From Pseudomonadota bacterium (lineage in GTDB: Bacteria; Desulfobacterota; Binatia; Binatales; Binataceae), in the NCBI GenBank assembly GCA_021323945.1, contig JAJPKA010000009.1, positions 1 to 48,480 of the forward strand: a DNA stretch of 48,480 bases, given 5' to 3'. A program made the translations under genes and the position numbers. The notes under the pieces were generated by a model, which had not been told where the DNA came from, searched no databases, and worked only from the letters and a program-made list of their open reading frames with translations. How positions within the stretch are numbered: position 1 is the stretch's first letter; every line of letters begins with the position of its first letter. This document shows positions 1,640 to 48,480 of the stretch, piece after piece.

Positions 1640-4600
1640 ATGGCCATTTCAAATCACGAGCGAGTCGGCAAGGCGCTCGAGCTCCTGAAGGCTGGGCTTC
1701 GACCGTATTTCGAGCGCGAGATGCGCGCGGTGCATGGCGACAAGTGGCTGGACGAAGCCGCCAACTCATTCCGCGACGGACGCCTGCCGCGGGACGCCAA
1801 GGGCGGGGTCAACTGGGACACGCATGCGCTGCTCTCGGTAATGGCTGGGCAGTGGAACTGGGTTTTCTCGAAGAAGCTCGGCAAGGCCGAGCGCAACCTG
1901 GTCGAAGAACTGCGCAACACCCGCAACGACTGGGCCCATCAGAAGCCGTTTACGACCGACGACGCCTATCGCGCGCTCGACAGCATTCATCGGCTGCTGA
2001 GCGCGATCTCGGCGGAGCAAGCCGCCGAGATCGAGCGCAGCAAGCAAGAGCTATTGCGCGTCCGTTTCGACGAACAGGCGCGCACGGAAACGCGCAAGCT
2101 CGCGGTTGCCCCGACTGAGGGGCAGCCGGAGCGCGGGCTCAAGCCGTGGCGCGAGGTCATCACCCCGCACCCCGACGTCGCTTCCGGGCGTTTTCAGCAG
2201 GCGGAGTTCGCCGCCGACCTGGGGCAGGTCTATCGCGGCGAAGGGTCGAACGAGTACAAGAATCCAGCCGATTTTTTTCAGCGGACCTTTATCACGCACG
2301 GCCTGCAACAACTGCTTGCCGGCGCGATCAAACGTCTGACCGGCGCGGGCGGCGATCCCGTGGTCGAGCTGCAGACCAATTTCGGCGGCGGCAAAACGCA
2401 TTCAATGCTTGCGCTGTATCACCTGTTTTCCGGCACGCCGGCGAAGGAGCTGCCCGGCATCGAACCGGTCCTGAAGGCGGTTGACGTGACTTCACTTCCG
2501 AAGACGCGGCGCGCCGTGCTCGTCGGGACGGAACTCAATCCGGCGGCGGCGCATCGAAAGCCCGACGGTACGGAGACGAACACGCTATGGGGTGAGCTCG
2601 CGTGGCAGCTGCTCGATAAGGAGGGGTACAAGCTGGTCGCCGAGGCGGATCGCAAGGGCGTAAGTCCAGGCGCTGGCGTTCTGCGCGAGCTGTTCGCCAA
2701 GGCATCCCCATGCCTGATTCTGATCGATGAGTGGATCGCGTTTCTCCGACAGCTTTATGGCGTTGCCGACCTTCCCGCCGGTTCGTTCGACGCAAATATG
2801 ACGTTTGCGCAGGCGCTGACCGAGGCTGCGAAAGCTTCGCCGCGAACGATGGTCGTAGCCAGCCTCCCGGCGTCGGACATCGAGAAGGGCGGCACGGCGG
2901 GAGACGAGGCGCTGGCCCGCATCAAGAACACGTTCGGACGGCTCGAATCACCGTGGACGCCAGCGAGCGTGGAGGAAGGATTCGAAATCGTGCGGCGGCG
3001 CCTCTTCCAACCGATCACCGAAAAGGAGAATTTCGCGGCACGCGATGCCGTCGCGCGCAAGTTCAGCGAGATGTACCGCCGGGATCCGCGCGAATTCCCG
3101 TCAGGATGCGGCGAAGGCGACTATCAACGGCGGATTCAAGCCGCCTATCCAATTCATCCGGAGCTCTTCGATCGCTTGTTCGAGGATTGGTCGACGCTTG
3201 ACAAGTTTCAGCGCACGCGCGGCGTGCTGCGGCTGATGGCCGCGGCAATCCACACGCTGTGGAAGCGCAACGACGCGAGCCTCTTGATCATGCCCGGCAA
3301 TATGCCGCTCGACGAGCCCGCAGTGCAGTTCGAACTGATGCGTTACCTGGACGATCCATGGCGACCGGTGATCGAGGCGGATGTTGACGGGCCCCATGCG
3401 GTTCCGCTGCGCATGGACCAGGAGAACCCCGCGCTAATGCGGTATTCCGCGTCGCGGCGCGTGGCGCGCACGATTTTCATCGGGTCGGCGCCCAAGCTGG
3501 AAGCGGCAAACAAGGGAATCGACGACTCGCGAATCAAGCTCGGATGCGCCCAGCCCGGGGAGACTGTCGCGACCTTCGGCGACGCTCTTCGGCGACTAAG
3601 CGATCAGACCACCTATCTCTATCAGGACGGTCGTCGCTACTGGTATTCCACGCAGCCGGGTGTCACACGGCTCGCGCAGGAGCGCGCCGCCCAGCAGCGC
3701 GAGGAGGACGTGCTGGAGGAGATCAGGCGGCGGCTGCGGCGCGAGGCGCGCAGCCGGGCCGATTTTTCGCGCGTATACGCGTGCGTACCGCACAGTGAGA
3801 TCGCCGATGAGGACAGCACGCGGCTGGTGATAATCGACCCTACCCAGCCGCACATGTCCAGGAACACGACTAGCCCGGCCATCAATGCGGCAGCGGAGTG
3901 TCTCAATAATCGCGGAACCAGTCCGCGGCTCAAGCGTAATACGCTCGTGTTTGTGGCGGGAGATCGGGCGCGTCTCGAAGAACTCAAGAAAGCCGTGCGC
4001 GATTATCTCGCGTGGCAATCCATCGAGCGCGACGCTGATACGCTGAACCTCGACCCATTCCAGCGCAAACAGGCACACGACAAAAACGAAGATGCAGACC
4101 GAACTGTCGAGCAACGGATTCCAGAGGCTTACTTTTGGCTCCTGGTCCCGTCAGAAAAGAAAGAGGGGGACTCGTCCCAAGGTCGCCTCGAATGGACCGA
4201 GCTGAAAGCGTCGGGGACCGACGCTCTTGCTAATCGCGCGTCCAAACGACTCAAGAGCGAAGGTCTGCTGATCACAAACTGGGCGGGCTCTCTGCTTAGA
4301 CGCGAGATGGATCGCGTGCCTCTATGGCGGGGCAATCACGTCGCCGTCAAGCAACTCGCTGACGACTTCGCCCGATACTTGTACCTGCCACGATTACGCG
4401 ATCGCGAGGTGTTGGCCGAAGCAATCTCCGATGGGCTTGGGCTCATTTCCTGGACGCAGGAGTCATTCGCCTATGCCGACGGCTGGGATGACGAGCAGCA
4501 GCGATATCGGGGCCTCCGGGTCGGTCAGCGGATCGGCATAAGCCTCGACGGCGACGGCTTACTGGTGAAGCCCGAAGTCGCGCAAGCCCAATTCGCCCGG

Positions 4601-5579: not shown

Positions 5580-6587
5580 TTAAGCGAGTTGCACAACCTG
5601 TTTACCCAGATTCTCACCAGTAAATAGCCGTATCAGCGCTTTGGGTGCATTCTCCAGACCGCGAGCCACATCGAGCTTGTTCTTGATTTTTCCTTCCGCA
5701 TGCCATCTGGAAAGCTCAGCGACCGCCTCGGGAAAACGACTTTGGAATTTAAGCACAATAAAGCCTTCCATCCGCGCGTTGCGCAAAATCAGATTGAAGT
5801 AATTCCGCGGTCCGGCGCCGAACATCCCCTGCGGATTGTTGTATTGCGAGATACCGCCGCAGAGCACAATGCGCGCATTGTTGGCGATCCGCTGCAGGAC
5901 CAGGTCAAGAATTTCGCCGCCGACATTGTCAAAGTAGATGTCCACGCCGCCGGGACATAAACGGGAGAGGGCGGACCCGACATCTTCGTTTTTATAATCG
6001 ATCGCAGCGTCGAAACCAGCTTCATTGAGCAGCCAGGCGCATTTGGCCGGCCCCCCGGCAATCCCGATCACGCGGCAACCCTTGATCCTGGCGATCATGC
6101 CGGCTACCGAACCGGTTGCGCCTGCTGCGCCGGAGACGACGAAGGTTTGACCAGGTCCTGGCTGTCCGATATCGAGCACCCCGAAATAGGCCGTGAGTCC
6201 CGTGACGCCCAGTAATGAGATTGCGAGCAGCGGATCGGTGCCGGGCGGCAGCTTTTGCATACCCCGCCCATCGCTGATCGTGTAGTCCTCCCATCCCGTC
6301 ATGCCTTGCACAAGGTCGCCGCTGGCGAACCCCTGGTTTCTCGAATCGACAACCTGGCTGACGGACAGGGCGCGCATCACTGCGCCCAACGGGACTGCGG
6401 GCATATAGGTATCCATCGCCATCCAACCACGTTGAGTCGGATCGCACGACAAGACGAGATTGCGAAGCAGAACCTCCCCTTGCTTGAGTGGCGGCAGGGT
6501 GGTTTCGTTCCAACGGAAGTCGCTCTCTTTTATCATCCCTGTCGGGCGCGCTGACAGCAGCCACTGACGGTTTTTCAATTCAGCCAT
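5580..6587 (-). CDS. NADP-dependent MDR-family reductase (CurA/PTGR-like)
   Basis: 335 residues, the usual length for zinc-independent medium-chain reductases of the curcumin reductase CurA / leukotriene B4 12-hydroxydehydrogenase type. The N-terminal catalytic domain contains SCDPTQRGWM. The Rossmann motif SGAAGATGS follows near residue 150, then the IDYKNED and YFDNVGG segments typical of this subgroup. No structural-zinc cysteine cluster is present. The reaction is expected to be NAD(P)H-dependent reduction of the C=C bond in alpha,beta-unsaturated ketones or aldehydes in the cytosol. It is transcribed divergently from the P450 gene, which suggests linked handling of oxidised lipids or ketones. 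The ATG start has AAGGA a short distance upstream. The family is certain, the substrate unknown. Confidence 0.9.
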   Translation of the reverse strand: MAELKNRQWLLSARPTGMIKESDFRWNETTLPPLKQGEVLLRNLVLSCDPTQRGWMAMDTYMPAVPLGAVMRALSVSQVVDSRNQGFASGDLVQGMTGWEDYTISDGRGMQKLPPGTDPLLAISLLGVTGLTAYFGVLDIGQPGPGQTFVVSGAAGATGSVAGMIARIKGCRVIGIAGGPAKCAWLLNEAGFDAAIDYKNEDVGSALSRLCPGGVDIYFDNVGGEILDLVLQRIANNARIVLCGGISQYNNPQGMFGAGPRNYFNLILRNARMEGFIVLKFQSRFPEAVAELSRWHAEGKIKNKLDVARGLENAPKALIRLFTGENLGKQVVQLA

Positions 6588-6874
6588 CGGAGAATCCTTC
6601 CAAGGTTAACGGAGCGGGTCGGGATCGATTCAAGCTTGCGATTGCGCCGCGACCATGGACGACCGATTGAATCAGTCGCACCGGCTGTGCGAACCGTACT
6701 AAGCGCGAGCTGAGCATAATCGATTTGACTTTGCGGCTCCAGGCGCCGGCTTCGGCCGTTGACCAGCTCCCGCGAGCCCTTCGGCTGAGATGTCGACCGG
6801 CTCCTTTCTTCCCGATACACAAAACTAGTGCAAACTGTTTGTTTTGCGATAACGTTGTCGGCAGGGCCGGTACG
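6588..6874. promoter_or_regulatory. Divergent promoter region with CAAACtGTTTG palindrome
   Basis: 287 bp between the divergent reductase (minus) and P450 (plus) genes, so it must hold both promoters. At 6831-6841 there is an inverted repeat, CAAAC-T-GTTTG, 34 bp before the P450 ATG, set in an AT-rich patch (6818-6846) within otherwise GC-rich DNA. It could be an operator for a local regulator. No regulator gene is adjacent. Confidence 0.35.
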
Positions 6875-8119
6875 ATGGAATTCGCCGAAATTGATCAGGC
6901 ACTGACCAATCCTGCCTTTTTCGTCAACCATGACCCTCATCCCCTGTGGCGGGAATTGCGGGAGCGGGATCCGGTCCATTGGACGCAAGGGCGAGTCAGG
7001 CCATTCTGGTCGGTTACTCGTTACGAAGATATCGTCACTGTTTTCAGTCAGCCCAATCTTTTTACTTCCACCAAGGGTCTGGTCGTCCCATCGAGTCCCG
7101 AGATGGAGCAGGTGACTCCTGAGATGATGGGCTCGGGTCAGATGATGATCATGACCGATCCACCGCTGCATGTAGCGATGCGGCGTGCTTTTAACCGTCT
7201 TTTTCTGCCGCGTCCGGTGGGCCGCTATGAGTCCCCCGGCTCGGCGCTGGTCAACGAGATTCTCGGCGAAGCGCTCGAACGGCAATACTGCGATTTCGTA
7301 GTGGACGTCGCCGCTCGGCTGCCAATGGCGTTTATTTGCGAGATCATGGGGATTCCGCGTGCCGATTGGCCGCTGATGTTCAAATGGGGGAACATGGCCC
7401 TGGGCAACGAGGATCCGGAGTATCAAACCGAGTCCCGCTCGCCACTTGAGACGCGCCAGCAGGGCTCAACCAACCTCGGCTCGTACTGTGCCCGACTGGC
7501 CTTGGAGCGTCGCGGTGGCGATGGCGACGATCTGCTGAGCGTCCTGGGCAACGCCAGGGTCAATGACCGTGAATTGACACAGACTGAATTAATGCACAAC
7601 GGCTTTCTGTACATCGTCGGGGGCCTCGAAACCACCCGTAACGCAATCTCCGGAGGATTGCTGGCCTTTATCAATCACCCCGACGAATGGACGCGGCTGG
7701 CCAACGACCGTTCACTCCTGCCGAGTGCGATTGAGGAGATCCTGCGCTGGACCAGCCCGATAACCCACATCGCCCGGACGGCGCTCGCCGACACGATCCT
7801 CGCAGACACCAAGATTCAGTGCGGCCAACAAGTGGCCTTGTGGCTCCCCTCGGCCAATCGCGACGAAGCGATCTTTGAGCAACCATATCGCTTCGATATC
7901 GCACGGACGCCTAACGAACACATTGCGTTCGGCAAGGGCGAGCATTTCTGCGCCGGCGCTCACCTCGCTCGTCTCGAGCTGCGCCTGATGTTTGAGGCGA
8001 TCCTCACCCGGGTCGACAAATTCGAGCTGGTGGGAGCCGTCGAGCGCTTACAGTCAAATCTCGTCGCCGGAATCAAGCACATGCCCGTCCGCCTGACGCC
8101 GGCACGGCATGCCGCCTGA
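6875..8119 (+). CDS. Cytochrome P450
   Basis: 414 residues from the chosen ATG at 6875. The frame is open 50 codons further upstream, but bacterial P450s begin close to the LTNPAFFVNHDPHPLWRELR segment, and the upstream stretch looks like leader DNA. Seen in order are the helix-I motif GGLETT, the K-helix ExxR in EEILRW, and the haem-binding loop AFGKGEHFCAGAHLA with the axial Cys at 359. This is a soluble class I bacterial P450 that needs a ferredoxin and reductase encoded elsewhere. It monooxygenates a hydrophobic substrate such as a fatty acid, sterol or terpenoid; the substrate cannot be read from sequence. A VOC protein gene converges on it 12 bp downstream. Confidence 0.95.
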   Translation: MEFAEIDQALTNPAFFVNHDPHPLWRELRERDPVHWTQGRVRPFWSVTRYEDIVTVFSQPNLFTSTKGLVVPSSPEMEQVTPEMMGSGQMMIMTDPPLHVAMRRAFNRLFLPRPVGRYESPGSALVNEILGEALERQYCDFVVDVAARLPMAFICEIMGIPRADWPLMFKWGNMALGNEDPEYQTESRSPLETRQQGSTNLGSYCARLALERRGGDGDDLLSVLGNARVNDRELTQTELMHNGFLYIVGGLETTRNAISGGLLAFINHPDEWTRLANDRSLLPSAIEEILRWTSPITHIARTALADTILADTKIQCGQQVALWLPSANRDEAIFEQPYRFDIARTPNEHIAFGKGEHFCAGAHLARLELRLMFEAILTRVDKFELVGAVERLQSNLVAGIKHMPVRLTPARHAA

Positions 8120-45671: not shown

Positions 45672-45759
45672 GCCGGGGTGGTGAAATGGCAGACACAGAG
45701 GACTTAAAATCCTCTGGGGCGAAAGCCCCGTGCGGGTTCGAGTCCCGCCCTCGGCACCA
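45672..45759 (+). tRNA. tRNA-Leu (anticodon TAA)
   Basis: 88 nt type II tRNA. Acceptor GCCGGGG pairs with CCTCGGC (one G-T), anticodon stem GAGGA/TCCTC with loop CTTAAAA gives TAA, the long variable arm is GGGGC-GAAA-GCCCC, and T arm GCGGG/CCCGC encloses TTCGAGT. Discriminator A and encoded CCA end at 45759. Its 3' end faces the right-edge defence operon. Confidence 0.96.
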
Positions 45760-46361
45760 CAAAATCGAGCGCCATACGGGGTGATTCCGTGCCCAAGGGG
45801 AAATGTCAAGCGTCAAAGGCGGTGGAGTGCGGCGTCACTTTGGGCTGTACTTTGGCTGCTTGCTAACCCCTAATCTCTGTCTCAGGGGCGCCCTCGGTTG
45901 CCGCGGTCTGCCTTTGCCATGGAGCTGGCTGACAAGGACTCGTGAAATGTTCGGTCCGCAAGCCTCGCTAAATCCCCGCCATGAAAGGAGGCTGCTGCAG
46001 TCGGGTCCTCGATCCAGGAAGTAGAGAGGCTCCGCAAGGGCCGACCGGCCCGCCAGTCAGCGCATATATTTGAGTGTCAAAAGCTTTCGATTAAAACGCC
46101 ACACTTAGCTACACCGCGTCGCTGTAGGATGTCGACGGAGCGGCGTCTCGAACGTCACAAGGGCGCGGCTCGCTCGTCGGGAGTCGGGTCGGCTCGAGAG
46201 CGATAGCCGCAGTCGAATCCGGCCAACTGAGTAGAGGCTAAAGGCGAATCCCTAGGTGGGCGCTTTTCATGTATATCGATGTCGACGCGGCTGTATGCTT
46301 GACACGTTCTCATTATCAGCGTACAGTACGTCGTGATTTTTCGAGGAGGCGGTATAATTAA
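45760..46361. other. Gene-free stretch between tRNA-Leu and the DndB-like operon
   Basis: 602 bp with no convincing gene on either strand. Frames at 45803-46024 (plus) and 46155-46538 (minus, overlapping the DndB start) show no family features. Only the last ~65 bp hold recognisable signals, the promoter of the next gene. No integrase or transposase remnant was found. Confidence 0.5.
46299..46327 (+). promoter_or_regulatory. Sigma70-type promoter with overlapping palindrome
   Basis: TTGACA (46299-46304, perfect -35) and TACAGT (46322-46327, 4/6 match to TATAAT) are separated by exactly 17 bp, 35 bp before the DndB-like ATG. The inverted repeat CGTAC-A-GTACG (46320-46330) covers the -10, as an operator would. 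AGGAGG follows at 46344-46349. Confidence 0.6.
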
Positions 46362-47483
46362 ATGATCCTTTCCTTTCCAGCGATGCGCGGCCGTATGGGC
46401 AAGCGCGACTATTTCGTGACGATGGTGAAGCTCAGCTTGGTGCCCAGGCTGTTCAAATTCCGAGATTGGGCCGAGTTGCCACCCGAGCAGCGCGCACAGC
46501 GGGTCATTCAGAAAAGTCGTATTCCCGAGATCACGCAATACATCCTCGACAACGAGGACGGCTACCTGTTTTCATCGCTCACCGCGTCGTTCGATTGTGA
46601 GCCGAAGTTCACGCCGGCGGCGGGCCGTGACGACATCGGCGTCCTGGAAATTCCGTTTGATGCCGACCTGGTAATCAACGATGGACAGCATCGTCGAGCC
46701 GCGATCGAAGAGGCGCTAAAGGAGAACCCGAAGCTGGGCGAGGAGACCATCTCCGTGGTGCTGTTTCCCTTCGAGGATCTCGGCCGGATGCAGCAGATGT
46801 TCTCAGACCTCAACCGGACCGCTCGCACCACCTCAAAGTCGCTCAACATTCTCTATAACCAACGCGACCTGATGAGCCAAATCACCCTGACCGTCACCGA
46901 GCGGATCGAGACCTTCAAGGGATTGGTGGATAAGGACCGGGTGTCGCTTGCGCTACGCTCACCCAAGCTCTTCACGCTGGCGGCGATCTACGACGCGGTC
47001 AATGCTCTTCTCGGTTCGGTGGTAGATGCTGACTATGACCATAAACTTGCACTTGCGCTGGAGTTTTGGGAAGGAGTAGCGGAAAACATGCCGGAATGGC
47101 AGAAGGTCAAGAACGGTGACTTGAAGCCGATGGAGTTTCGCCAGGAATTCATCCACTCCCATGCGGTGGTGCTGTGCGCCCTTGGTTCGATGGGACAGAC
47201 GCTGATCTCGACGTATCCGGATGACTGGAAATCGCGCCTTCGAGGACTTCGCCAGATCGACTGGCGCAGGACAAACAAGGAATGGCAAGGGATCGCGATG
47301 TCAGGCCCGGACGTGGTGAATCGGCGCCAGAATCGAATGGATACGGCGTCATTCCTCAAGCTGAAGATGGGTCTCAAACTTACCCCTGCAGAAGAGCGGT
47401 CGATAAAGGGAGCGACCGATATATCCTCGATCATGAACGATCTGCGTAAGTTCGCCGGCGAAACCGCTGCCTCACAGAACTAA
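46362..47483 (+). CDS. dndB: DndB-like DGQHR-domain protein
   Basis: 373 residues. The DGQHR signature is at 107-111 (VINDGQHRRAAIEEAL), followed by MFSDLNRTARTTSKSLNILYN, both hallmarks of DndB. The N-terminus (SFPAMRG, VKLSLVPRLF, QKSRIPEITQYILDN) also aligns with DndB, which supports the ATG start. The SD AGGAGG lies 12 bases away, rather far. In dnd loci DndB is a repressor/modulator of the dndCDE phosphorothioation genes; related DGQHR proteins occur in other DNA-modification loci. No dndCDE are visible here. Downstream are a PC4-like gene (17 bp) and a probable methylase. Confidence 0.9.
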   Translation: MILSFPAMRGRMGKRDYFVTMVKLSLVPRLFKFRDWAELPPEQRAQRVIQKSRIPEITQYILDNEDGYLFSSLTASFDCEPKFTPAAGRDDIGVLEIPFDADLVINDGQHRRAAIEEALKENPKLGEETISVVLFPFEDLGRMQQMFSDLNRTARTTSKSLNILYNQRDLMSQITLTVTERIETFKGLVDKDRVSLALRSPKLFTLAAIYDAVNALLGSVVDADYDHKLALALEFWEGVAENMPEWQKVKNGDLKPMEFRQEFIHSHAVVLCALGSMGQTLISTYPDDWKSRLRGLRQIDWRRTNKEWQGIAMSGPDVVNRRQNRMDTASFLKLKMGLKLTPAEERSIKGATDISSIMNDLRKFAGETAASQN

Positions 47484-47500
47484 TCTTCGGAGCAACTTCG

Positions 47501-47794
47501 GTGGATGACTCAAGCCACCTTGTCGCGCAGTTTGAGAAGAACTCCAGGGAAGAAGTCCGAGTCAGCATTGACGACTTCCGCGGACGCAAGATCATCAACA
47601 TCCGCGTCTACTACCGATCCGACAGCGGCGAGTGGTTGCCTGGAAAGCAGGGCCTGGCGCTCTCCGTCGATCGCTATCGCGATCTCGCCGATGCTGTTTT
47701 GAGACTCGGCGAGGAGCTGCAAGCTCAGGCTCTTCTTCCGGCAGCGAGGATGGGCAACGAATCACGCACCCGCGTGAGCGGCAACAAACAGTGA
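47501..47794 (+). CDS. PC4/p15-like ssDNA-binding protein
   Basis: 97 residues, GTG start with GGAG eight bases upstream. The core VAQFEKNSREEVRVSIDDF, then KIINIRVYYRSDSGEWLPG, KQGLALSVDRYRDLADAVLRL matches the PC4 (transcriptional coactivator p15) beta-sheet/helix fold, which binds single-stranded DNA as a dimer. The tail past ~75 is not conserved. Bacterial PC4-like proteins are often found in phage and defence loci. It lies 17 bp after the DndB-like gene and 82 bp before the probable methylase, so an operon role in DNA modification or melting is likely. Confidence 0.8.
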   Translation: MDDSSHLVAQFEKNSREEVRVSIDDFRGRKIINIRVYYRSDSGEWLPGKQGLALSVDRYRDLADAVLRLGEELQAQALLPAARMGNESRTRVSGNKQ

Positions 47795-47876
47795 GGACGG
47801 GACCGGAAAAACGCGCCTTCTATCCGCTTCGGATGGTGCGTTCGACATCTGCGCCAGTTCACGAGGCGGATATAAG

Positions 47877-48480
47877 ATGACATTCCTCGACGACATCGAG
47901 CTGCGGCCGCTCGAGATTGGCGACGGTCGCGCATTCCACCCTGTCGGGCTCGCGCTCGGCAAGGGAGCTCAGCCGGTTGAGGTTGCGGTTTTGGCGGCGG
48001 ACCGCCGGCCGTCGGTATCGGATCTGCGTGCGTTATGGAAGGCGCGGCTCAAGGGCCGTGCCACACCGCTCCTTGTCGTTGCGCTGTACGACGGCCGCGC
48101 CGCCATCTGCGGGCCGGCGGGTGATCAGCCGCCCGCTTACACGGACCTCGATCCGGACTTGGTCGAGCGAATTTGCCGGGCTGCGTTGGAGGAACCGGAC
48201 CGTCATGCCGCCTTGCGGCGCCTGCATGCGGCGATTCCCAACGTCCAGGCATCGCTGGCGGGACTGCGCAACGAGGGGCTGTTCGCGACCCATGAGCTCG
48301 AGCACGACGTACGCCGCCGCCCGGACTGGCCGGATGCGAATTCCCGCGCGACGGCTCTACTGAAGGAGCGGGGTGAGGCTCTCCTCCGCGCCCTCGGCTT
48401 CAGTGTAGAGCCTTTGACCGCCGGGCCTGGCTCAATTTTGCGCGCGGCCGGCACGCGAACCGCCCTCGCTATTTTCCTGG
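47877..48480 (+). CDS. N-terminus of a large protein, probably Eco57I-type methylase/restriction enzyme
   Basis: Open from ATG 47877 to the window edge (201 codons, no stop). The visible part is an alpha/beta region: VAVLAADRRPSVSDLRALWKA, TPLLVVALYDGRAAICGPAG, DLDPDLVERICRAALEEPDRHAAL, GLRNEGLFATHELEHDV and ERGEALLRALGFSVEPL. I recall this N-terminal layout from long actinobacterial proteins annotated as Eco57I restriction-modification methylases or class I SAM-dependent DNA methyltransferases. No catalytic motif is visible yet because it is truncated. Operon position after DndB-like and PC4-like genes supports a DNA-modification role. The family call is tentative. Confidence 0.55.
   Translation, partial: MTFLDDIELRPLEIGDGRAFHPVGLALGKGAQPVEVAVLAADRRPSVSDLRALWKARLKGRATPLLVVALYDGRAAICGPAGDQPPAYTDLDPDLVERICRAALEEPDRHAALRRLHAAIPNVQASLAGLRNEGLFATHELEHDVRRRPDWPDANSRATALLKERGEALLRALGFSVEPLTAGPGSILRAAGTRTALAIFL

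What the first reader, a model, noticed from the sequence alone, without database searches (positions are those of the whole stretch)
46362..48480. DndB-like / PC4-like / probable methylase operon: candidate undescribed DNA-modification or defence system
A DndB-family protein (DGQHR at 107-111) heads an operon with a PC4-like ssDNA-binding protein and the N-terminus of a large protein recalled from Eco57I-type methylases. DndB is normally tied to dndCDE phosphorothioation, none of which is visible. Coupling a DndB-type regulator to a methyltransferase through a PC4 protein would be a different architecture. The window ends inside the third gene, so the rest is unseen.
Basis: partly seen in the sequence, partly recalled or inferred. 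Interest (0 to 1): 0.8.

Follow-up and report, generated by a model that had tools for sequence, protein, structure and literature searches.

The report
DndB–PC4 cassette heading restriction-modification operon
A protein best known as a regulator of sulphur-based DNA marking sits here, with a small DNA-binding partner, at the head of what looks like a methylation-based anti-virus gene cluster, which suggests that the pair may be a portable control unit reused by different DNA-marking defences.

Summary
The three genes are real and correctly named. 46362–47483 is a full-length DndB (above NCBI's equivalog cut-off), 47501–47794 a PC4 protein, 47877–48480 the first 201 residues of an Eco57I/PglX-type N6-adenine methyltransferase cut by the contig end (the window is the whole contig). 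The rest probably lies on a 3.9-kb contig of the same genome: methyltransferase C-terminus, an Mrr_N protein, the start of a PLD-nuclease/SNF2 helicase. Relatives show the same order, though no single locus seen is complete. dndC, dndD and dndE were not found over cut-off in the eight genomes searched for each. The methyltransferase–helicase pair is a wider R-M-like module (bacteria, archaea, plasmids, viral contigs) resembling the pair shared by DISARM class 1 and ARMADA. Apparently new is the DndB–PC4 cassette: 7 distinct loci in one family, PC4 directly after DndB in all 7, behind a conserved promoter, once before a quite different helicase plus Type ISP-like methyltransferase. A Neorhizobium plasmid has a comparable DndB–RHH–methyltransferase operon. 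Best reading: a ParB/sulfiredoxin-fold autoregulator plus ssDNA-binding partner controlling methylation-based restriction, uncoupled from phosphorothioation. Anatomy is solid; regulation is inferred.

The parts
46292..46327 (+). Promoter with conserved flank: GTATGC then TTGACA-17-TACAGT; candidate operator GTAY ... RTAC
   Evidence: 10 of 12 sigma-70 matches (2 such sites in 2.6 kb, 0.8 expected from shuffles, so the scan alone is weak); TTGA-17-TA...T at 58-67 nt before the start in 8 of 8 DndB genes of this clade against 1 of 9 other DndB genes tested (the pattern was drawn from the clade); pairwise identity 0.26 in the 60 nt further upstream, 0.58 in the 10 nt before the -35 box, 0.89 in the -35, 0.37 in the spacer, 0.76 in the -10
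46362..47483 (+). DndB (373 aa), ParB/sulfiredoxin-like N-terminal fold, DGQHR at 107-111
47501..47794 (+). PC4/p15-type ssDNA-binding protein (97 aa)
47877..48480 (+). N-terminal 201 aa of an Eco57I/PglX-type N6-adenine methyltransferase (full length about 1350 aa), cut by the contig end; the C-terminal 695 aa are probably at G000:C16:1862-3949 (-), followed there by an Mrr_N protein and the start of a PLD-SNF2 helicase

Best explanation
The operon is a methylation-based restriction-modification (anti-phage) system. A large N6-adenine methyltransferase (SAM motif DIAMGSGHF and catalytic NPPW intact) marks self DNA; a helicase with an N-terminal PLD/HKD nuclease and SNF2 motor, probably with the methyltransferase as target-recognition subunit, translocates on and cuts unmarked DNA. 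It is headed by a portable DndB–PC4 control cassette. DndB, a ParB/sulfiredoxin-fold protein whose relatives bind or hydrolyse nucleotides and, in the studied DndB, repress their own promoter, acts on the conserved promoter in front of the operon. PC4 binds single-stranded DNA, either at the melted promoter (regulation) or at DNA unwound by the helicase. The cassette would keep restriction and modification in balance, as C proteins do for classical R-M systems (recalled comparison). Shown: gene identities, order, co-conservation, purifying selection, conserved promoter, motif integrity. Inferred: anti-phage role, joining of contigs C10 and C16, DndB binding to that promoter, role of PC4, division of labour between methyltransferase and helicase.
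For: Gene identities. Own-genome continuation on a second contig with the right parts in order; the genome has one N-terminal and one C-terminal methyltransferase piece. The same order in relatives: DndB–PC4–ParA–204 aa–methyltransferase–helicase start in G008/G022 (one sequence); DndB–PC4–methyltransferase–NTPase-like–helicase start in G018 across two contigs with an exact 107-bp overlap; decayed DndB–diverged PC4–methyltransferase–Mrr_N–complete helicase in G024:C15. PC4 follows DndB in 7 of 7 distinct loci. DndB stays 91% identical in G040 while the downstream helicase is only 27% identical and the methyltransferase is of another family. Conserved promoter in 8 of 8. DndB of this clade separates from 11 dndC-linked DndBs with 100/100 support. 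Second-look fold match of the DndB N-terminal domain to ParB, the ParB-like repressor KorB, sulfiredoxin, SspE and BrxU. Salmonella DndB represses its own operon through palindromes in the promoter (PMC4507180, passages). Helicase downstream on the same strand within 4.4 kb in 12 of 13 distinct loci whose methyltransferase is at least 38% identical and whose C-terminal end is in view.
Against: No experiment. No single locus seen holds intact DndB, PC4, methyltransferase and a complete helicase: contig ends cut G000, G008/G022 and G018, and G024 has lost DndB at that site. The Salmonella motif TACG-N10-CGTA does not occur upstream of these genes. Cys29, important in Salmonella and reported as highly conserved, is Val in the seven PC4-linked DndBs and Ile in G334; but by the same alignment 2 of the 11 dndC-linked rows also lack Cys. 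The C10-C16 link is inferred across a gap of about 1.4 kb. The ten methyltransferase loci from outside the family show neither DndB nor PC4 by tblastn (a diverged PC4 could be missed), so the cassette is not essential to the pair. A solo DndB–PC4 (G024:C19) and a truncated, chimeric locus (G031) exist. The promoter pattern was defined on the clade itself. DndB model confidence is moderate (mean pLDDT 72.8), Foldseek alone gave no hit at E <= 0.001, and a Z near 8 may mean only a common arrangement.
Confidence: 0.55

Rival explanations
1. DndB is a working part of the defence rather than a regulator: a nucleotide-hydrolysing sensor of DNA state (modified or unmodified, or phage nucleotides) that licenses the helicase-nuclease, as the DGQ(H/Q)R domain of DndI does for phosphorothioate, with PC4 holding single-stranded DNA made by the helicase.
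For: Second-look fold kinship of the DndB N-terminal domain with SspE (Z 5.3), BrxU (4.8) and weakly DndI (3.7). In DndI the arginine of DGQQR is needed for ATPase activity and defence (PMC11662687, passages). An NTPase, nuclease or nucleotide-degrading role for DndB is discussed in PMC10853773 (passages). In the 7 distinct loci the cassette stands beside helicase or methyltransferase genes in 6 and alone in 1.
Against: DndB and PC4 are not detected at any of the 8 loci from outside the family that show the methyltransferase-helicase pair, so the pair can exist without them. No nuclease domain was recognised in DndB by Pfam. The promoter stands out in the only non-coding stretch examined.
Confidence: 0.25
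2. DndB–PC4 is a passenger: a regulator left over from a lost dnd locus or carried by a mobile element, with no functional tie to the R-M genes.
For: G024 keeps a solo DndB–PC4 at one site (L063) and a decayed DndB with a diverged PC4 in front of an intact methyltransferase at another (L015). DndB-like sequences are common on plasmids: 982 records at E <= 1e-5, of which 120 cover at least 80% of the query.
Against: Strong purifying selection on both genes, strict DndB-PC4 order on one strand in 7 of 7 distinct loci (17-nt gap in the window), and DndB of this clade is distinct from dnd-linked DndB.
Confidence: 0.12
3. A phosphorothioation (Dnd) system whose dndCDE lie elsewhere and which shares DndB with the R-M genes.
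For: DndB passes the equivalog cut-off for dnd DndB.
Against: dndC 0 of 8 genomes, dndD over cut-off 0 of 8 (one short sub-threshold match in G000), dndE 0 of 8 (its controls were silent). Genome 95.5% complete.
Confidence: 0.03
4. The third gene of the window is not the methyltransferase but a chimera like that of G031 (methyltransferase N-terminus fused in frame to a SNF2 segment, 587 aa), so the locus is degenerate.
For: G031 shows such an ORF after DndB–PC4; the window stops at residue 201, close to the G031 junction at residue 199.
Against: The window's genome holds a single C-terminal methyltransferase piece at the end of a small contig, in order with the Mrr_N protein and helicase and 86% identical to the relative; at the four other distinct loci of the family with sequence past residue 201 (G008/G022, two in G018, G024:C15) the methyltransferase continues.
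Confidence: 0.05

Closest known systems
Dnd phosphorothioation system (dndBCDE)
   Same: Full-length DndB as first gene of a row that modifies DNA; DndB is a known self-repressor there (PMC4507180, passages)
   Different: No dndC or dndD over cut-off found (dndE search silent in controls too); modification is by an N6-adenine methyltransferase; PC4 partner; Cys29 equivalent replaced; DndB of a separate clade
DISARM class 1 / ARMADA (DrmMI- or PglX-like methyltransferase + DrmD/BrxHII-like SNF2 helicase)
   Same: Methyltransferase L013 scores 239 bits to a DrmMI model, helicase L015 145 bits to a DrmD model; same pairing as described in PMC12458937 (passages)
   Different: No DrmA/DrmB or YprA-type gene seen beside the pair (annotated neighbours; ten flanking or inserted ORFs without a DISARM hit); the nuclease is fused to the SNF2 helicase; DndB–PC4 added
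PbeABCD / CxC-ABC systems
   Same: PLD/HKD nuclease fused to an SF2 helicase (PbeA); PADLOC C3a139 HKD+Snf2 188 bits; the G040 helicase also matches PbeA at 59 bits
   Different: No CxC-ABC ATPase or DndE seen; methyltransferase of a different class
Type IIG restriction enzymes (BpuSI, DrdV)
   Same: PADLOC REase_MTase_IIG model 991 bits; weak structural match of residues 156-298 to BpuSI (Z 6.8) and HsdR (5.4)
   Different: The strand that should carry (D/E)xK reads AxAxxL with no acidic or lysine residue (by eye), so the nuclease fold looks inactive; a separate PLD helicase is present
Neorhizobium sp. SOG26 plasmid NZ_CP025514 DndB–RHH–N6 methylase–Type IIG operon
   Same: DndB plus a small DNA-binding protein heading methyltransferase genes, no dndCDE listed on the 15-kb plasmid; DndB 45.8% identical
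   Different: RHH instead of PC4; other methyltransferase families; no PLD helicase listed

Membership tests
DndB protein family | Passes TIGR03233 equivalog and PF14072 cut-offs, DGQHR present | tested here: met
Dnd phosphorothioation system | dndC (sulfurtransferase) | tested here: not met
   0 of 8 genomes at E <= 0.001, own genome included (set with G021, without G040); control rang in 5 of 14, over cut-off in 0
Dnd phosphorothioation system | dndD | tested here: not met
   0 of 8 over the cut-off (set with G040, without G021); two short sub-threshold matches, one in G000
Dnd phosphorothioation system | dndE | tested here: inconclusive
   0 of 8, but the search rang in none of its controls
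PC4/p15 family | PF02229 over its cut-off and sequence match to solved PC4 | tested here: met
Eco57I/PglX/DrmMI-type N6-adenine methyltransferase | PF07669 over cut-off, SAM motif, NPPW | tested here: met
   On the full-length relative and, for NPPW, on the own-genome C16 piece; the window's 201 aa alone do not reach the catalytic domain
Type IIG restriction enzyme | Active PD-(D/E)xK nuclease in the same polypeptide | tested here: inconclusive
   Fold-like match with Z below 8, and no (D/E)xK in the strand across 8 sequences, read by eye
DISARM | drmA/drmB (MZB domain, PF09369; that DrmA/B carry it is recalled) beside drmMI/drmD | tested here: not met
   MZB domain in 0 of 7 relatives' genomes and in G000 only on contig C8, away from C10 and C16 (control rang in 8 of 14)
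BREX | PglZ | tested here: not met
   PglZ in 1 of 8 genomes (G030), none in G000; control rang in 2 of 14
PbeABCD / CxC-ABC | CxC-ABC ATPase with DndE beside the HKD helicase | tested here: inconclusive
   No model of that ATPase was run on the genomes; dndD-family search gave nothing over cut-off
Restriction-modification or anti-phage system | Restriction of phage or unmodified DNA | not testable with these tools
   needs experiment

The most novel reading that the evidence does not exclude
DndB–PC4 is a transferable controller of DNA-modification defences in general: a nucleotide-gated ParB-like repressor that, with a single-stranded-DNA-binding partner, senses the state of the operon's DNA and adjusts the ratio of restriction to methylation. 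The phosphorothioate dnd operon would be only one client. The Neorhizobium DndB–RHH–methyltransferase plasmid would be a second branch of the same idea.
Probability: 0.3. Interest if true: 0.75.

Novelty: new variant of a known kind. Interest (0 to 1): 0.6.

Why it matters
DndB is commonly read as a marker of phosphorothioation, and annotation names it 'DNA sulfur modification protein'. Here a DndB above the equivalog cut-off belongs to what looks like a methylation-based system, in a genome without detectable dndC and without dndD over cut-off, so that label can mislead. It also makes an open question testable: whether DndB acts as a promoter-bound regulator or as a sensor of DNA modification, because the operon offers a DndB apparently freed from sulphur chemistry. 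DndB together with PC4, or p15 together with restriction-modification, was found in no paper of the held library.

Tried and rejected
Plain dnd locus: rejected on dndC/dndD searches. A new methylase class: rejected, PADLOC and Pfam already cover it. DndB fused to PC4 in G334 (a C-terminal tail looked PC4-like by eye): Pfam finds no PC4 there, dropped. The Salmonella DndB operator TACG-N10-CGTA: not found upstream, so only a weaker GTAY/RTAC arrangement is offered. Methyltransferase N-terminal nuclease: Foldseek no hit at E <= 0.001, weak second-look match and missing residues, left open. DndB structure: Foldseek gave no hit at E <= 0.001; only the second look by VIA-align places it with ParB; no PDB sequence match. 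DndB single-sequence scan of viral contigs found none; an alignment scan found nine, of which L105 and L106 have a dndC-like ORF next (by eye), L104 ends with dndB, and the six weak ones (23-26%) were not examined. Methyltransferase in annotated phage records: no match. PC4 on plasmids: one weak match, not followed. Literature: DndB with PC4 0 papers; p15 with restriction-modification 0 papers; DGQHR 6 papers listed, one opened. Papers were read as found passages only (PMC10853773, PMC12839542, PMC12458937, PMC6459918, PMC4507180, PMC8569181, PMC11662687); their supplementary tables could not be read, so a mention there is not excluded.

Counting cautions. G008 and G022 carry the same 8,347-bp sequence at 100% identity, probably one contig binned twice or a very recent transfer, and count as one locus. 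In the order-wide DndB search (41 genomes, 11 matches, 7 over cut-off) three further matches below cut-off are distant: G031:C1 and G005:C63 have no PC4 hit, G032:C171 was not fetched. The 12 of 13 helicase count covers loci at least 38% identical with the methyltransferase end in view; left out are the window, L021, L022, L023 (contig ends), L042 and L025 (truncated), the eight distant viral loci L096-L103 (25-31%; a helicase hit in L097 only) and the twelve distant own-phylum loci L081-L092 (seen with 1.5-kb flanks, no hit); L041 is the one without helicase (a transposase follows). Of ten plasmid records matched five were opened. The L022 methyltransferase ends at 939 aa and may be broken. 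The promoter count of 8 includes G334, which has no PC4; the nine others are G342, G291, Neorhizobium and six of the plasmid dnd loci (L060, L061 and L077 were not tested). Of the 11 'dndC-linked' tree rows, six rest on annotation and five (L059, L060, L065, L066, L077) on neighbouring ORFs read by eye.
Full report
Observation. The window is the whole contig C10 of its genome. Its last 2.1 kb hold three co-directional genes: DndB 46362-47483, PC4 47501-47794 (17-nt gap) and the start of a long ORF at 47877. DndB passes the NCBI equivalog cut-off (400 against 328 bits) and Pfam (386 bits); its DGQHR is at residues 107-111. PC4 scores 53.7 bits to PF02229 and aligns with solved PC4 and MoSub1 structures. 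The third ORF matches only PADLOC's REase_MTase_IIG model over its 201 residues.

What the third gene is. Long relatives were found, for example 1349 aa in L013 and 1355 aa in L015. The L013 protein is 90% identical to the window's 201 residues, scores 991 bits to the same PADLOC model, 239 to DrmMI and 56 to Eco57I PF07669, and has DIAMGSGHF and NPPW. In the window's own genome the search finds one C-terminal piece, on C16 (ORF 1862-3949), a contig of 3949 bases. After it, on the same strand, come a 206-aa protein with an Mrr_N domain and the first 311 aa of a PLD/SNF2 helicase with HxK and a P-loop. The join across about 1.4 kb is inferred. In G018 the same kind of break is bridged by an exact 107-bp overlap of two contigs.

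The module. Downstream of the methyltransferase follows a helicase of about 1,120 aa with PLDc_2, SNF2 and Helicase_C domains. Of 13 distinct loci at least 38% identical with the methyltransferase end in view, 12 have this helicase on the same strand within 4.4 kb. They include a planctomycete (Brocadiia) and a Bacteroidetes genome, Mycobacterium, Euzebya and Halalkalicoccus plasmids, and three viral contigs. Between the two genes lie variable inserts: an Mrr_N protein (G000, G024), an NTPase-like protein with sub-threshold AAA_16/NB-ARC matches (G018), a Schlafen-AlbA protein (L016), a 286-aa ORF (L093), M78-peptidase genes and PIN-like ORFs (L018; two peptidases tested, PIN by eye). In G008/G022, ParA plus a 204-aa protein lies before the methyltransferase. 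DISARM class 1 and ARMADA share a PglX-like methyltransferase and a BrxHII-like helicase (PMC12458937, passages), and the HKD-SF2 fusion is the PbeA type of CxC systems (PMC10853773, passages). This pair is therefore a known kind of module, here without MZB-type helicase, PglZ or a seen ABC ATPase beside it. Relatives below about 31% identity are more scattered: 10 further own-phylum genomes of 345 and eight viral loci, mostly without this helicase in view.

The cassette. In the 41 genomes of the order, the DndB model gives 11 matches, 7 over cut-off. All 7 are followed directly by PC4. An eighth, in G022, is a contig-cut copy of the G008 sequence (100% over 8,347 bp). Of the 7 distinct loci, 5 lead to this methyltransferase: the window, G008, two in G018, and G031, where it is truncated and fused to a SNF2 segment. 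One (G040) leads to a helicase only 27% identical, a Type ISP-like methyltransferase (PF18135 251 bits) and a PDC-S68 protein. One (G024:C19) has no recognised partner, while the same genome has a decayed DndB and a diverged PC4 in front of an intact methyltransferase at C15. No single locus seen shows all genes complete. G030 has a methyltransferase start at a contig end without DndB or PC4 on that 7.4-kb contig. None of the 10 methyltransferase loci from outside the family shows DndB or PC4 by tblastn. In a draw of 345 genomes of the phylum, DndB occurs in 4: G000, G291 and G342 (dndC-like ORF next, by eye) and G334.

DndB relations. In a tree of 23 DndBs, the seven PC4-linked ones, G334 (same phylum, no PC4 found) and the Neorhizobium plasmid DndB form one side of a 100/100 branch, apart from 11 dndC-linked ones. 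The Neorhizobium branch is long and its place less sure. That plasmid carries DndB, an RHH protein, an N6 methylase and a Type IIG enzyme, with no dndCDE listed. Its DndB is 45.8% identical to the window's, and at most 38.5% to the 11 other plasmid records listed (of 961 matched). dndC is missing in 8 of 8 genomes, dndD is not over cut-off in 8 of 8, dndE is missing in 8 of 8 with silent controls. The dndC set held G021 in place of G040.

Promoter. In front of DndB all eight genes of the clade tested have TTGA(C/T)(A/G)-17-TA...T 58-67 nt before the start, against 1 of 9 other DndB genes; the pattern was drawn from the clade. Anchored on the -35 box, pairwise identity is 0.26 in the 60 nt further upstream, 0.58 in the 10 nt before it (GTATGC), 0.89 in the -35, 0.37 in the spacer and 0.76 in the -10. 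GTAY before the -35 and RTAC at the -10 occur in 6 of 8 each (counted by eye): an inverted arrangement that could be an operator. The motif reported for Salmonella DndB is not there.

Mechanism. In the second-look alignment the DndB model (pLDDT 72.8) matches ParB CTPase domains best (Z 8.2; 92 residues at 2.3 A, or 134 at 7.0 A), then KorB (7.3), Noc, sulfiredoxin, SspE and BrxU; Foldseek alone gave nothing at E <= 0.001. KorB is a repressor, by its record title. Salmonella DndB represses its own operon (PMC4507180, passages). DndI, another DGQ(H/Q)R protein, uses its ATPase to tell modified from unmodified DNA (PMC11662687, passages). I therefore rank a promoter-acting regulator first (0.55) and a modification sensor second (0.25). 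Against the first: Cys29, important in Salmonella, is Val or Ile in the PC4-linked clade and G334 (position taken from an E. coli DndB with Cys at 29, the Salmonella sequence itself was not aligned; 9 of 11 dndC-linked rows have Cys). Restriction would come from the PLD helicase. The methyltransferase's own nuclease-like fold (residues 156-298; BpuSI Z 6.8, HsdR 5.4) lacks the (D/E)xK residues by eye and is below the Z that can be trusted alone.

Verdict. The architecture is real, conserved, free of dndC, and of dndD over cut-off, as far as the genomes show, and was not met in the papers searched and the passages read. It is a new variant of a known kind of R-M-like defence, made notable by the DndB–PC4 head unit.

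Noticed in passing
window 45672-45759: A tRNA-Leu (anticodon taa) lies about 530 bp upstream of the DndB promoter on the same strand: a possible integration site for the defence cargo.
   Followed up: no
L064 8975-19001 and L070 (G040:C274): The same DndB–PC4 pair heads a larger locus: HKD helicase, Type ISP-like methyltransferase, PDC-S68 protein (1194 bits) and an Hsp70-like ATPase (read by eye).
   Followed up: partly
L058 (NZ_CP025514): A 15-kb plasmid with a DndB–RHH–methylase–Type IIG operon and, upstream on the other strand, a TIR-domain gene.
   Followed up: partly
L025 9705-11468 (G031:C32): Methyltransferase N-terminus (199 aa) fused in frame to a SNF2 helicase segment after DndB–PC4; a SIR2-like gene (5755-7047) lies upstream on the other strand.
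   Followed up: partly
L013 and L019: Two genomes that the tool assigns to different genera share 8,347 bp at 100% identity; probably one contig binned twice, or a very recent transfer.
   Followed up: yes
L018 14014-18414: Between methyltransferase and helicase in a Bacteroidetes genome sit M78/IrrE-type peptidase genes (two tested by Pfam; a third by eye) and PIN-like ORFs (by eye).
   Followed up: no
plasmid collection: 982 plasmid records hold a DndB-like match (120 cover at least 80% of the query), 829 typed conjugative. Of 12 opened, 9 have dndC next (3 of them by eye), 1 has methyltransferases (Neorhizobium) and 2 (H28, H32) list no dndCDE; that gene table is incomplete.
   Followed up: partly
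L067 720-2159 (G334:C141): DndB of 479 aa with a C-terminal extension of about 130 aa without a Pfam match over cut-off; same promoter type as the PC4-linked genes.
   Followed up: partly
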